Under the pieces are notes generated by a model. The model saw only the letters and a list, made by a program, of their open reading frames with translations, was not told the DNA's origin and made no database searches. Shown piece by piece: positions 48,961 to 53,900 of a stretch of 64,000 bases of DNA. The stretch comes from an uncultured Alphaproteobacteria bacterium. Its GTDB lineage: Bacteria; Pseudomonadota; Alphaproteobacteria; Geminicoccales; Geminicoccaceae. Position 1 is the first letter of the stretch. Every line of letters begins with the position of its first letter. Both the position numbers and the translations under genes were made by a program. The stretch covers positions 1 to 64,000 of the forward strand of contig CALKJU010000055.1 in the NCBI GenBank assembly GCA_937995535.1. Direction: 5' to 3'.

Positions 48961-49584
48961 TCAGTCGCCCAGCTCGAGCCGGGCGGAATCGGGGACGGCG
49001 ACGTCGCCATGGGTCGCGACGACGACCAGGCCGCCCGTGTGGCGGTGTTCCGCGATCACCGCCTCGAGCCGCGCGCGGCTCGCGCGATCGAGGCCGACCC
49101 CGGGCTCGTCGAGCAGCCACAGCGGTCGCGGGCTCGCCAGGAGCCGGGCCAGCGCCAGCCGCCGGCGCTGCCCGGCCGACAGGAACTGCGCCGGCAGGTC
49201 CGCCAGCGGGGCCAGCCGCATCCCGTCGAGCGCGGCGCCGAGCTCTCCTCTGCGCTCGCCGAGCGCCGCGGCGAAGGCGAGGTTCTCCTCCGTGGTCAGG
49301 CCGCCCTTCACCGCGTCGGCGTGGGCGACGTAATGCACCCGGGCGCGGTGCCCGGCCGGGTCGTCGGCGACCGGCCGGCCGTCCCAGCGGATCTCGCCAT
49401 GGGCGGGGCGCAGCAGGCCGGCGAGCACACGGAGCAAGCTCGACTTGCCGGAGCCGTTGGCGCCGCGCAGCGTGAGTGCGTCGCCGCGCCGCAGCTCGAA
49501 GCCGACGCCGGCGACGACGAGCCGCCCGCCGCGCCGGACAGCGAGCTCGCGGACCTCCAGCCCGGCCGGGTCAGCCGCGGCCAC
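48961..49584 (-). CDS. ccmA: Heme ABC exporter ATPase CcmA
   Basis: The 207-residue ATPase has Walker A (GANGSGKSSLL near 41), the signature LSAGQRRRLALARLL near 135 and Walker B (LWLLDEPGVGLD). The short length and the YVAHADAVKGGLT segment are typical of CcmA. It energises CcmB. The GTG at 49584 is chosen; it overlaps the end of the upstream ligase gene by 14 bp. A longer ATG-started form would overlap it by 65 bp. The ccm genes thus appear to be read through from the liv-type operon. Confidence 0.9.
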   Translation of the reverse strand: MAAADPAGLEVRELAVRRGGRLVVAGVGFELRRGDALTLRGANGSGKSSLLRVLAGLLRPAHGEIRWDGRPVADDPAGHRARVHYVAHADAVKGGLTTEENLAFAAALGERRGELGAALDGMRLAPLADLPAQFLSAGQRRRLALARLLASPRPLWLLDEPGVGLDRASRARLEAVIAEHRHTGGLVVVATHGDVAVPDSARLELGD

Positions 49585-50881
49585 GCCGGTCGTCGATGAC
49601 CTTGCCGTCGCCGGGCAGGCTGTGCGGTGCCACAAGCTCGACCTCCGCCCGGAGGCCGGTCAGCGCGCGGATCGTCTCGACGACGCGCTCGCGCAGGCCC
49701 GGCGGGTCGGCGTCGACCTCCGCCAGCAGGCGCATGGCGTCGTGACCGTCTCGGCCGTCGACGACCTCGAGCCGCATCCGTTGCAGCTCGGGATGGCGGC
49801 GACCGATCTCCCCGACCTGGTGCGGATGGACGAACATGCCGCGAATCTTGGTCGACTGGTCGGCGCGGCCGAGCCAGCCACGCAGGCGCATGTTGGTCCG
49901 CCCGCACGGGCTTTCACCGGGCAGGATCGCCGACAGATCACCCGTCGCGAAGCGGATCAGCGGGTAGTCGGGATTGAACGTGGTCACCACGACCTCGCCG
50001 ACCTCGCCCGGGGGCAAAGGCGCACTGCCGCCCGGCTCGACGATCTCGACGATCACCGCCTCGTCGACCACGAGGCCCTCACGGGCCGAGGTCTCGTACG
50101 CGACCAGACCGAGGTCGGCCGTGGCATAGAGCTGGTAAGCGTCGATCGCGTGCTCGCGGGCGAGCCGCTCCCGCGCTGCGGTCGTGAAAGGCTCCCCCGA
50201 CAACAGGGCCTTGCGCAGCGACCCCGTCGCCAGACCGAGCTTCGCGCCCGCCTCGAGCAGGGTCAGCAGGAAAGTGGGCGTTCCCACATAGGCGACCGGC
50301 TGCAGATCGTTGATGACGCGCAGCTGCAGCTCGGTCTGGCCGGTGCCGGCCGGGATCACCGGGCAGCCTAGTGCGCGGGCGCCGCTCTCGGCCATCGCCC
50401 CACCCGGGGTCAGATGATAGCTGAAGGTGTTGTGGACCAAGTCGCCTGGCCGGAAGCCGGCGGCGAACATCGCGCGGGCGAAGCGCCAATAGTCTGGACG
50501 GCCGCCTTCGGGGTCGTAGATCGGACCCGGCGAGGCGAAGATGCGCGCAAGGCGCGCCGGCGGAGTCGCCGTCAGCCCACCGAAGGGCTTCCGCTCGTGC
50601 TGCAGCGCGACGAGGTCGCTCTTGCGCAGCACCGGCACCCGGGCCAGCGCCGTGCGGTCGGCCACGCTGTCGGGATCGATGTCGCGCAGGGCGTCGCGAT
50701 AGAAGTCGCAGTTGTCGATCGCGTGCCTGATCAGTCCGGGCAGGGCATGGAAGATCGACCGCTCACGGTCGGCCGGACCACGGACCTCCTGGCGGTCGAA
50801 ATAGCTGCCCCCGTTCTCGGCGCTGCTCACCGCGTCTCCATCGCCTTGCTGCCGATCGATCGCTGCCCGTGAGACGATCAT
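49571..50881 (-). CDS. Phenylacetate-CoA ligase-family (PaaK-like) adenylate-forming enzyme
   Basis: The 436-residue protein is a PaaK-type ligase: a FDRQEVRGPADRE start, RVPVLRKSDLVALQ near 95, the large domain with PAGTGQTELQ near 180 and VAYVGTPTFLLTLLEAG, YQLYATADLGLVAYE near 250 and the C-terminal KIRGMFVHPHQVGEI. The canonical P-loop SSGTTGKP is replaced by a SPGPIYDPEG-like segment near 125. It should turn an aryl or other carboxylic acid into its CoA thioester. It closes the liv-type operon, whose first gene is another CoA ligase. Start overlaps the preceding gene stop (ATGA). Confidence 0.82.
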   Translation of the reverse strand: MIVSRAAIDRQQGDGDAVSSAENGGSYFDRQEVRGPADRERSIFHALPGLIRHAIDNCDFYRDALRDIDPDSVADRTALARVPVLRKSDLVALQHERKPFGGLTATPPARLARIFASPGPIYDPEGGRPDYWRFARAMFAAGFRPGDLVHNTFSYHLTPGGAMAESGARALGCPVIPAGTGQTELQLRVINDLQPVAYVGTPTFLLTLLEAGAKLGLATGSLRKALLSGEPFTTAARERLAREHAIDAYQLYATADLGLVAYETSAREGLVVDEAVIVEIVEPGGSAPLPPGEVGEVVVTTFNPDYPLIRFATGDLSAILPGESPCGRTNMRLRGWLGRADQSTKIRGMFVHPHQVGEIGRRHPELQRMRLEVVDGRDGHDAMRLLAEVDADPPGLRERVVETIRALTGLRAEVELVAPHSLPGDGKVIDDRRGRG

Positions 50882-51723
50882 AAGCCGCCGGGGTTCCCGA
50901 TGGCCACGTCGTAGCGTGCGCGCAGGCGTGTGACGATGCCACGCAGCCAGCGCGGGTCGCCGAGACACTCCCACTCCGCCCAGAGCTCGTGAAAGGTCCG
51001 CGCGGCGAGAGCGACCTGCGAGCCTTCGACACGCCGACGGACCTCGTCGAGCTCGTGGCGGTGTGCGCGGAACGGTGGCAGCGCGGCGGCGTTGGCCGGC
51101 TCCAGGTACAGATAGAGCAGGGTCACGCCCCGTCTCGGAAAGGTGCGGCCGAGTCCGAGAGCGTGCTTGGCCAGGGTCGGAACGTCGACATGCCTGAAGC
51201 GGCGCGGCTCGCGCAGCACGAGCCAGACCAGGTCCAACCAGGGCTCGAGCCCCGGGGGCGTGGCGAGCCGGGCATAGCCGGGGGCCAGGCCGCCCGACCG
51301 CCGCCGGAGGTACTCGACGCAGCGGGCGCTGACGGCGACCAGGCCCCGGTCGTGCAGAGCAATCAACTCGAGCGTCGGTGGCGTGCCGCGGACGCCGGTC
51401 GGGCAGCGGGTCTCGAAGTGCAGCTCGCGGAAGCCGCTGATGCCGGCGAGCACGAGTTTCTCCGGGCAGCGCTGCCAGTTGAGGAAGCTGTTGGCGGCGA
51501 GAACGGCGCCGCTGTCCGGCTGGCGCAGGCGCGCAGTGTCGAGACGGTTCCGCTCGAGCAGCGCCACGTCGATCCCGTCGACGAGGCTCAGGCGCGAATC
51601 GTGCAGCCGACCGTCGAGGCCGAAGTGCTCGGGACCGATCCTTGCCCTGAGCGCGGCGTCCAGCGCTCGGCCGACATGCGCAGCCAAGTGCTGGCGCCGG
51701 CCGCCGACCGGTCCGCGCTCCAC
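50878..51723 (-). CDS. Uncharacterised protein with a possible degenerate nuclease-like core
   Basis: The 281-residue protein starts at a GTG with GGGAGG 10 to 15 bases upstream. It is not membrane-bound. The stretch HFETRCPTGVRGTPPTLELIAL, then VAVSARCVEYL near 130, resembles from memory the core of PGN_0703-type putative restriction endonucleases, where the matching segment reads VAVESKxTEYL. If so, the catalytic E-x-K is replaced by S-A-R and the protein is probably inactive as a nuclease. The C-terminus is rich in Arg, His and Leu. It is coupled to the PaaK-like gene and follows livF by 22 bp, so it belongs to this operon. No function is assigned. Confidence 0.6.
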   Translation of the reverse strand: MERGPVGGRRQHLAAHVGRALDAALRARIGPEHFGLDGRLHDSRLSLVDGIDVALLERNRLDTARLRQPDSGAVLAANSFLNWQRCPEKLVLAGISGFRELHFETRCPTGVRGTPPTLELIALHDRGLVAVSARCVEYLRRRSGGLAPGYARLATPPGLEPWLDLVWLVLREPRRFRHVDVPTLAKHALGLGRTFPRRGVTLLYLYLEPANAAALPPFRAHRHELDEVRRRVEGSQVALAARTFHELWAEWECLGDPRWLRGIVTRLRARYDVAIGNPGGL

Positions 51724-51745: not shown

Positions 51746-52558
51746 CTAGAGCCAGCGTTTGCGACGCTTGTAGCTCTTGGTATCCCGGAAGCTGCGGCGG
51801 CCCGACGAGCTCAGGCCGAGATAGAACTCCTTGACATCCTCGTTGTCGCGCAGGCCGCTCACCGGCCCCTCCAGCACGACCCGGCCGTTCTCGAGGATGT
51901 AGCCGTAGCTCGCATGGCGCAGCGCGATGCTCGCGTTCTGCTCGGCGAGCAGCAGCGTCACCCCCGCCTCGCGATTGAGCCGTGTCGTGATCTCGAAGAT
52001 CTCCTCGACGAGTTGCGGCGCCAGGCCCATCGACGGCTCGTCGAGCAGGATCATCCGCGGCCGCGCCATCAGCGCGCGGCCGATCGCGCACATCTGCTGC
52101 TCGCCGCCCGAGGTGTAGCCGGCCAACGAGCTGCGCCGCTCACGCAGGCGCGGGAAGTAGGCATAGACGCGTTCGAGGTCGGCCTGGATCGCGCCCCAGC
52201 CGTCACGACGGGTGTAGGCACCGGTGAGCAGGTTCTCCTCGACGGTCAGATGCGCGAAGCAGTGCCGCCCCTCCATGACCTGGATGCAGCCCCGGCGGAC
52301 GACCTCGTTCGGTGACAGCCGGTCGACGACCTCGCCAGCGAGACGGATCGAGCCCTTGGTCACCGCGCCGCGCTCGGCGCCGAGCAGGCAGGAGATCGCC
52401 TTGAGCGTTGTCGTCTTGCCGGCGCCGTTGGCGCCGAGGAGGGCGACGATGCCGCCCGCCGGCACCTCCAGCGACACGCCCTTGAGCACGAGGATGACGT
52501 GGTCGTAGACGACCTCGATGTTGCTGACCGCGAGCAGCGGTGCCGTCGCCGCCGTCAT
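51746..52558 (-). CDS. livF: Branched-chain-type ABC transporter ATPase, LivF-like
   Basis: The 270-residue ATPase has Walker A (GANGAGKTTTLKAIS near 43), the LivF marker VMEGRHCFAHLTVEENLLTGAY, the signature SGGEQQMCAIGRAL, Walker B (MILLDEPSMGLAP) and LLLAEQNASIAL. A basic C-terminal tail (KSYKRRKRW) is extra. It pairs with the LivG-like ATPase to drive uptake through LivHM. Given the two CoA ligase genes in the operon, the substrate is more likely an organic or aromatic acid than an amino acid. Confidence 0.88.
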   Translation of the reverse strand: MTAATAPLLAVSNIEVVYDHVILVLKGVSLEVPAGGIVALLGANGAGKTTTLKAISCLLGAERGAVTKGSIRLAGEVVDRLSPNEVVRRGCIQVMEGRHCFAHLTVEENLLTGAYTRRDGWGAIQADLERVYAYFPRLRERRSSLAGYTSGGEQQMCAIGRALMARPRMILLDEPSMGLAPQLVEEIFEITTRLNREAGVTLLLAEQNASIALRHASYGYILENGRVVLEGPVSGLRDNEDVKEFYLGLSSSGRRSFRDTKSYKRRKRWL

Positions 52559-52574
52559 CCTCGTGCCACCTACG

Positions 52575-53900
52575 TCAGGCGCAGGGCTCGGCGCGCTTGG
52601 GCCAGTCGGGGTTCTGCGCAACGTAGTCGGCAGCCGCCTTCTCGAGCAACGGCCAGACCACCTCGCGGTCGGACTCGAACCAGTCGGACGCCGGCTGCCA
52701 GGTCTTGCCATCCCATTGCTGGATGTAGACCCTGTTCCCCGGGGCGTGGTTCTTGCAGCTGACCTGGAACGGCTGGAAGAAGCCGGTGACACCCAGCTCG
52801 GCCATCCGCTCCTCGGTGAAGCTCATCGTCTCCAGGCCGAGCCGGACGTCCTCGGCGGTGACCAGCTTCTTGCCGGTCGCCCGCTGCGCGGTGGCGATCG
52901 CCTCGGCGATCAGGACCGAGTTCATGACGCCCCGGTTGTAGAGGTTCTCGCCGACGCGGCTGCGGTCGCTGACCTTGCTCAGCCCCTTGTCGACCACGTG
53001 GGTGAGAATGTCCTGGATGACCGGATAGTCCTGCCCCACGGCGTTGATGTTCATGGTCTTGTAGCCGACCGCGTCGGCTCCGGCCGGACGCGCGTCGTCC
53101 TCACCGCCGGACCACCAGACACCGATGAACCGCTCCATCGGGAAGCGGATCTTGGCCGCCTCCTTGACCGCGGTCGGGTTCATCGCACCCCAGCCCCACA
53201 TCACCATGTAGGCCGGGTTGTCGCGGCGGACGTTGAGCCATTGCGACGACTGGTTCTGCATCTGGTCGCCGGGGACCGGGTATTTCAGAAGCTGGAACCC
53301 GTAGCGCTCCGCCATCTGCTCGAGCAGCGGGATCGGCTCGCGGCCATAGCCGGCGTCGAGATAGATGAAGCCGATCTTCTTGCCGCTGAGCTGGTCGAGG
53401 CCGCCCTCCTGCTCGGCGATGTAGGCGAGGACCGCCGAGGCGCCGTCCCAATAGGTGAGAGGTGGGTTGAAGGCCCACGGGAAAACCTCGCCGACCGCTG
53501 TCGCCGACAGGCCGTAAGCCATCGACAGGATCGGGATCTTGTCGACCGGTGCCTTGGGGATGAGCTGCAGCGTGATCGCGGTCGAGTAGGGGTTGTAGAT
53601 GAGAGCCCCCTTGCCCTTGGTGCTCTCGTAGCACTCGACGCCCTTCTGGGCGTCGTAGCCGGTCTCGCACTCCTCGATCACCAGCTTGACGCCGCCGATA
53701 CCGCCATCGCGCTCGTTCAGCATGACGAGATAGTCGCGCATGCCGTCGGCGATCGGGATGCCGGAGCCGGCGAACGGGCCGGTCCGGTAGGTCAGCAGCG
53801 GCACGTAGAGCGTGTCTTCGGCCAGCGCCGGACCGGTCGGTGCGGCCAGCGCCAGCGCCAGCGCGACGGTTCCTCCGGCCAACAGACGATGCAGTCGCAT
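52575..53900 (-). CDS. Branched-chain-type ABC transporter substrate-binding protein
   Basis: The 441-residue protein has a Sec signal (about 1-27, cleavage after ALA) and a Peripla_BP_6 fold: YVPLLTYRTGPFAGSGIP, the IEECETGYDAQKGVECYE segment with a likely disulfide and ILSMAYGLSATAVGEVFPW. It belongs to the LivJ/UrtA superfamily branch associated with aliphatic and aromatic acids rather than to LivK proper. It lies 16 bp upstream of livF. The C-terminus ends PKRAEPCA. Substrate not predictable from sequence. Confidence 0.85.
   Translation of the reverse strand: MRLHRLLAGGTVALALALAAPTGPALAEDTLYVPLLTYRTGPFAGSGIPIADGMRDYLVMLNERDGGIGGVKLVIEECETGYDAQKGVECYESTKGKGALIYNPYSTAITLQLIPKAPVDKIPILSMAYGLSATAVGEVFPWAFNPPLTYWDGASAVLAYIAEQEGGLDQLSGKKIGFIYLDAGYGREPIPLLEQMAERYGFQLLKYPVPGDQMQNQSSQWLNVRRDNPAYMVMWGWGAMNPTAVKEAAKIRFPMERFIGVWWSGGEDDARPAGADAVGYKTMNINAVGQDYPVIQDILTHVVDKGLSKVSDRSRVGENLYNRGVMNSVLIAEAIATAQRATGKKLVTAEDVRLGLETMSFTEERMAELGVTGFFQPFQVSCKNHAPGNRVYIQQWDGKTWQPASDWFESDREVVWPLLEKAAADYVAQNPDWPKRAEPCA

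What the first reader, a model, noticed from the sequence alone, without database searches (positions are those of the whole stretch)
50878..51723. Putative nuclease-fold protein with lost catalytic residues inside a transporter operon
A segment resembles the core of PGN_0703-type nucleases, but E-x-K appears as S-A-R. It is tightly coupled to a CoA ligase gene and a liv transporter gene. A dead nuclease fold reused in transport or acid activation, or as a regulator, would be new.
Basis: inference. Interest (0 to 1): 0.5.

Follow-up and report, generated by a model that had tools for sequence, protein, structure and literature searches.

The report
Domesticated dead nuclease beside transporter genes
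A bacterial gene next to a nutrient-transporter operon encodes a protein shaped like a DNA-cutting enzyme whose cutting residues have been lost throughout one bacterial family although the gene is still maintained, and most of the intact relatives found sit on viral DNA.

Summary
It occurs in 18 of 31 genomes of the window's GTDB family. Profiles join it to PD-(D/E)XK nucleases of Pfam REase-ARP (hhalign 99.9%, E=6.6e-37). A 24-row AlphaFold2 model (pLDDT 85.9) has the nuclease core, with S-A-R where E-x-K belongs. Five positions (E104, D119, E132, K134, Q183) are invariant in 53 relatives with the motif region, 44 from viral contigs; the 18 family copies keep them in 1, 12, 1, 1 and 0, and no copy keeps both E and K. 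dN/dS is about 0.16-0.43, so the gene is under selection. It is a family-wide pseudonuclease. The operon link is loose: livF is not beside 8 of 18 copies, the ligase not beside 4 of 18, and close relatives have livF and ligase adjacent without the gene. A role in transport or acid activation is weakly supported; non-cutting nucleic-acid binding is my preferred, unproven reading.

The parts
50878..51723 (-). pseudonuclease gene, 281 aa, REase-ARP / PD-(D/E)XK fold
   Evidence: ORF; orthologues; profile match; model
51412..51414 (-). E104 codon: strand-1 Glu, E in 53 of 53 relatives, kept in 1 of 18 family copies (this one)
51367..51369 (-). E119 codon: position of the motif Asp; D in 12 of 18 family copies, E in 2
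51322..51330 (-). S132-A133-R134, in the place of E-x-K, end of strand 3 of the model
51175..51177 (-). T183 codon: place of a Gln that is invariant in the 52 relatives that cover it, kept in 0 of 18
51746..52792 (-). livF-type ABC ATPase, neighbour upstream (open frame; true start probably inside)
49571..50974 (-). PaaK-like AMP-binding gene, neighbour downstream (open frame; true start uncertain)

Best explanation
The gene is a domesticated pseudonuclease. Shown by computation: it descends from a PD-(D/E)XK nuclease of the REase-ARP kind; in this bacterial family the E-x-K, the strand-1 Glu and the helix Gln were lost while the fold, the core motifs and the open frame stayed under purifying selection. 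Inferred: one gene, of the type now found mostly on viral contigs, settled between livF and the PaaK-like gene early in the family, was disarmed, and was later lost from several genera. Inferred: it now binds nucleic acid without cutting it and acts in trans as a housekeeping regulator or roadblock through residues kept from the intact enzymes (R106, R112, K186, R222, R270), not as a part of the transporter or the ligase. The number below is for the whole statement; for the disarmed and maintained nuclease fold alone I would say 0.85.
For: Orthologues in 18 of 31 genomes. hhalign of 18 family copies against 7 relatives with the motif: 99.94%, E=6.6e-37. Model pLDDT 85.9, pTM 0.88; the best second-look matches are PD-(D/E)XK nucleases, Nt.BspD6I Z 7.6, rmsd 3.1, 139 aligned. 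Site lost in 18 of 18 (both E and K kept in 0), while 53 of 53 relatives keep them; of 22 columns invariant in the relatives the four least kept are 183, 104, 132, 134. dN/dS 0.16-0.43 in 8 pairs; 20 columns invariant in the 18 copies. Gene persists without livF (8 of 18) or without the PaaK-like gene (4 of 18) beside it. Basic residues at 112, 186 and 270 in 18 of 18, at 106 in 17, at 222 in 15.
Against: No result shows nucleic-acid binding. The dead copies are more basic than the viral ones (net +5.4 against +0.1 over the core), but neighbouring proteins of these GC-rich genomes vary as widely. The window copy keeps acids at 104 and 119, and 13 of 18 copies pair an acid at 119 with R or K at 134. 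Foldseek alone has no match at E<=0.001 and the best Z is under 8. Monophyly of the dead copies has modest support, 86/88 and 88/47, so one disarming is not proven. The gene is missing from 13 of 31 genomes, so it is dispensable.
Confidence: 0.5

Rival explanations
1. It is a protein partner or local regulator of its neighbours (Liv transporter, PaaK-like ligase, or Ccm).
For: Tight spacing in the window; 16 of 18 copies lie in the PaaK-like/ccmA block, the other two behind livF.
Against: No single neighbour is constant: livF beside 10 of 18, PaaK-like beside 14 of 18. Nine relatives keep livF and PaaK-like side by side without the gene, as do 11 of 18 loci from other families.
Confidence: 0.2
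2. It is still a nuclease with a rearranged site: the Glu has moved to E137 after strand 3, as I recall for the Cfr10I/Bse634I group, and R134 stands in for the Lys.
For: Position 137 is E or D in 17 of 18 copies; an acid at 119 together with R or K at 134 occurs in 13 of 18. The window also has E104.
Against: Position 137 is E in 53 of 53 intact relatives as well, so it is no replacement that arose with the loss. Five copies (L010, L011, L016, L017, L018) have neither R nor K at 134, and four of them no acid at 119; Gln 183 is kept in 0 of 18.
Confidence: 0.12
3. It shields the host from intact phage nucleases of the same family, by masking their target or by forming mixed oligomers.
For: 44 viral contigs carry full-length intact relatives; two of two tested by head genes lie beside a major head protein gene.
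Against: Of 31 family genomes only G025 carries a second, intact-type copy, and that one is broken. Long vertical inheritance under purifying selection looks like housekeeping rather than an arms race.
Confidence: 0.1
4. It is a decaying gene without function.
For: dN/dS is 1.1 to 10 times that of ccmB, livF or livG in the compared pairs, and the gene is missing from 13 of 31 genomes.
Against: dN/dS stays at 0.16-0.43; no stop inside the match in 17 of 18 copies, and in the eighteenth (G026) the one stop reported is the last codon; 20 invariant columns.
Confidence: 0.05

Closest known systems
REase-ARP, Pfam PF22558 (Restriction Endonuclease associating with ARP)
   Same: Homologous over nearly the whole length; viral-contig relatives score up to 132.5 bits against a cut-off of 27 and align with the window at 33-37%; fold and core motifs shared.
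   Different: The window scores 11.1 bits; E-x-K and the helix Gln are lost; it stands in a metabolic block. The association with ARP was not tested.
PDDEXK_13, Pfam PF20796
   Same: Weak match of intact relatives over the same C-terminal stretch (E 0.0048 at best).
   Different: Below cut-off; no match of the window itself.
Catalytically dead RNase II relatives such as fungal Ssd1
   Same: Precedent for how it may work: a nuclease descendant without catalysis that binds nucleic acid as a regulator (PMC8097288, PMC8934651; only the start of the abstracts seen in the listing).
   Different: Another fold, eukaryotic, RNA binding shown by experiment there and not here.

Membership tests
PD-(D/E)XK superfamily | Core of helix, three strands, helix, strand | tested here: met
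   Model pLDDT 85.9, pTM 0.88: helix 72-85, strands 100-106, 117-124, 127-134, helices, strand 199-206. Second-look matches led by Nt.BspD6I Z 7.6, rmsd 3.1, 139 aligned; R.BspD6I2 Z 6.7, rmsd 3.7, 129 aligned; the first rows that I recall as unrelated come at Z 4.0. Foldseek itself has no match at E<=0.001.
PD-(D/E)XK superfamily, active nuclease | Asp and E-x-K of the catalytic site | tested here: not met
   Window has E119 and S132-A-R134; both E and K kept in 0 of 18 family copies.
REase-ARP (PF22558) | Score above Pfam's cut-off of 27 bits | tested here: not met
   Window 11.1 bits; 11 of 20 rows of A1 match at E<=1. Descent from this family is shown by the profile comparison instead.
REase-ARP (PF22558) | Genomic association with ARP | not tested
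   No ARP gene was sought.
   No Pfam or NCBIfam row bears the name for the window or for the relatives scanned; whether such a model exists in the libraries was not checked.

The most novel reading that the evidence does not exclude
A phage-type restriction nuclease was captured once by the ancestor of a bacterial family, disarmed, and turned into a conserved nucleic-acid-binding protein of the host that regulates genes or shields the chromosome from the intact phage enzymes.
Probability: 0.3. Interest if true: 0.7.

Novelty: new variant of a known kind. Interest (0 to 1): 0.5.

Why it matters
Dead nucleases are a known kind, but here 18 disarmed copies and dozens of intact relatives can be compared, the disarmed ones at a recurring chromosomal site across a whole bacterial family. 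It offers a testable case of restriction-type weaponry turned into a host protein, and it warns against naming such genes restriction enzymes by fold alone.

Tried and rejected
A first model from two sequences was useless (pLDDT 43) and was not interpreted. Foldseek alone gave no match at E<=0.001 in PDB or BFVD. PDB sequence searches with the window protein and with two profiles gave nothing significant. PADLOC had no match for the window and three relatives; PHROGs nothing significant for the same four; NCBIfam nothing for four relatives and for the window only an FtsL model far below its cut-off. The genome-contig scan found one relative, L020. The first viral scan with A1 found none; scans with other queries opened the viral set; scans with L098 and L097 found none. 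Excess basic charge was considered as a sign of DNA binding and not used as strong evidence, because neighbouring proteins vary as widely.

Literature: 'REase-ARP' is in 0 papers of the library; searches with words for inactive PDDEXK or pseudonuclease proteins, phage cargo and Geminicoccaceae (a guess at the family, not confirmed) listed no paper that I could tie to this gene. No paper was opened.

Rows dropped before counts: L134 and L135 (viral copies whose frame ends at 161 aa before the motif; the same contigs are L171 and L173), G259 and G123 (fragments without the motif region), L101 from G274 (in-frame stop; E-S-K visible; used in the tree only). L104 (broken copy in G025) is counted among the 53 because its motif region can be read. 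G006 (contig ends inside the PaaK-like gene) and G028 (no PaaK-like match) cannot show the empty site, though neither has a match to the gene in the whole-genome searches.

Full report
What is there. The ORF 51723-50878 on the minus strand encodes 281 aa. The livF-type frame ends 22 nt upstream, and the open frame of a PaaK-like AMP-binding gene overlaps its end. The block reads, on the minus strand: acyl-CoA ligase, livG, livH, livM, livK, livF, this gene, PaaK-like, ccmA, ccmB, ccmC. The LivF-type ATPase, the binding protein and the ligase have family matches; the other names come from reading the translations. The window is probably from an alphaproteobacterium: the best plasmid matches of the PaaK-like protein are Azospirillum at 58-59%. 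That is an inference.

Is it real. tblastn with the window protein finds it in 18 of 31 genomes of the same GTDB family, the window's own included (11 of 16 genera), at 34-48% identity for the others, and in 0 of 29 genomes of other families of the class (same 18). A profile search of 385 genomes of the class gave 7 matches outside the family: five show E-S-K (one of them with an in-frame stop), two are fragments without that region. A draw of 398 genomes of the phylum gave two others, both with E-S-K. So in the genomes searched the disarmed form was seen only in this family.

What it is. The single sequence is under every family cut-off. Relatives give the identity. L020, from a Solirubrobacteraceae MAG, and the broken second copy in G025 pass the REase-ARP cut-off of 27 bits with 48.4 and 51.6. 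The profile of 18 family copies aligns with 7 relatives that keep the motif at 99.94% probability, E 6.6e-37. Scans of viral contigs brought 46 contigs with a relative, 44 of them full length: 35 distinct proteins, 26 clusters at 95%. In the profile scan they match the window at 33-37%. Neighbours were tested for three of them: L119 and L120 lie beside a major head protein gene; three open frames next to the L179 copy matched no PHROG. The L179 protein reads VAVESKCIEYL where the window reads VAVSARCVEYL. A further intact relative lies on a Qipengyuania plasmid.

Fold. With 22 viral rows and L020 as alignment, AlphaFold2 gives pLDDT 85.9 and pTM 0.88. The core is helix 72-85, strands 100-106, 117-124 and 127-134, helices, strand 199-206. 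Residue 104 is in strand 1, residue 119 near the start of strand 2, residues 132-134 at the end of strand 3, residue 183 at the start of helix 181-194. That is where this superfamily carries its site, as I recall it. Foldseek finds nothing at E<=0.001. The second-look aligner, limited to Foldseek's 1000 best chains, puts Nt.BspD6I (Z 7.6, rmsd 3.1, 139 aligned), R.BspD6I2, Can2/Card1, McrBC, BstEII, Shedu, EcoT38I, Bax1 and SfsA first; the first rows that I recall as unrelated come at Z 4.0. Z under 8 is not strong alone, so the fold claim rests on profile, model and this ranking together.

Loss of the site. Positions 104, 119, 132 and 134 are E, D, E, K in 53 of 53 relatives that keep the motif region, and 183 is Q in the 52 that reach it. 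The 18 family copies keep them in 1, 12, 1, 1 and 0. L017 keeps the E but has L for K; L013 keeps K but has T for E; no copy has both. Of 22 columns invariant in the relatives the four least kept are 183, 104, 132 and 134; next come S72 (3 of 18), H187 (4) and H263 (6), while F80, L90, P116, H221 and E224 are kept in 18 of 18. A rank test of the five site positions against the other 17 gives p 0.002, but the five were chosen after the alignment had been seen. So the site went and the frame stayed. Against a complete verdict on the window copy alone: it still has E104 and an acid at 119, and 13 of 18 copies pair an acid at 119 with R or K at 134.

Selection and history. A Nei-Gojobori count in 8 pairs of related genomes gives dN/dS 0.16-0.43 for the gene and 0.03-0.24 for neighbours; in one pair (G018, G024) the PaaK-like gene is the less constrained of the two (0.24 against 0.17); synonymous sites are near saturation in the most distant pair. 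The gene tree and a tree of neighbouring genes share the groups G002+G004, G018+G024, G020+(G011,G025), G001+G015+G022 and G014+G026. Presence and absence need four changes on the neighbour tree, a quick tree with several weak forks. The dead copies form one side of a branch with modest support, 86/88 and 88/47, with long branches flagged. One capture, one disarming and several losses is the simplest reading; direction of transfer between phage and host is not shown.

Is it always in the operon. No. Eight copies lie between livF and the PaaK-like gene. Two (G014, G026) follow livF but precede a guaB-like gene. Six (G003, G011, G018, G020, G024, G025) have no livF in the fetched stretch but a PaaK-like gene that lacks its C-terminal domain. 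Two (G007, G017) have ccmA next to them and neither livF nor the PaaK-like gene; G007 has a livK-like match 0.8 kb upstream. Eight fetched relatives without the gene have livF and the PaaK-like gene next to each other with 49-156 nt between match ends; a ninth, G029, has both on one short locus. A profile of the family finds no copy in the 12 stretches around these PaaK-like genes. In other families, of 18 examined loci 11 have livF 4-402 nt from the PaaK-like gene, and 0 of 18 match this gene; Azospirillum and Methylibium records show livF and PaaK-like adjacent. The block is therefore wider spread, and probably older, than the gene's place in it.

What it may do. livF or the PaaK-like gene can be missing while the gene persists, so I do not favour a subunit of transporter or ligase (0.2 for any neighbour-bound role). 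Residues kept in intact and dead copies alike suggest that a nucleic-acid cleft survives: R or K at 112, 186 and 270 in 18 of 18, at 106 in 17, at 222 in 15. Higher net charge of the dead copies counts little after the neighbour control. My preferred reading is non-cutting nucleic-acid binding in trans. Displaced active site 0.12, shield against phage nucleases 0.1, slow decay 0.05. Fungal RNase II pseudonucleases that bind RNA are a precedent for the mode of action (PMC8097288, PMC8934651; abstract starts in the listing).

Novelty. No paper in the library holds the family's name, and listings for related words show none that I could tie to this gene. Catalytically dead PD-(D/E)XK proteins exist, as I recall. 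A family-wide one at a recurring metabolic locus, with intact relatives found largely on viral contigs, is a new variant of that kind.

Noticed in passing
window 49571-50974 (-): The PaaK-like protein has ASPGPIYDPEG where the crystallised PaaK 2y4o has the nucleotide loop ASSGTTGKP; none of the 26 family members that cover the place shows T-T-G there, with or without the pseudonuclease gene. The ligase may itself be altered or inactive.
   Followed up: partly
L034, L022, L113, L031, L025, L030, L036 (G003, G011, G013, G018, G020, G024, G025): In seven genomes the PaaK-like protein lacks its C-terminal domain (339-372 aa), and in the same stretches livF was not found; six of the seven carry the pseudonuclease gene.
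   Followed up: partly
L104 376-771 (-), G025:C445: A second, intact-type copy (CPTGLRGG..PNLDVLLSG..GAEAK) in the same bacterial family, 53% identical to the viral-contig protein of L119, but broken by two stops.
   Followed up: partly
L119 2803-3714 (+), L120 1774-2619 (+): Intact REase-ARP genes on viral contigs, on the strand opposite to the adjacent major head protein gene, which suggests phage cargo genes.
   Followed up: partly
L057 12004-12735 (+), Qipengyuania citrea plasmid NZ_CP098496.1: Intact relative followed by HEPN-domain and DUF3883 genes, with an Abi-family gene and a HipA-family toxin gene nearby; possibly a defence cluster.
   Followed up: no
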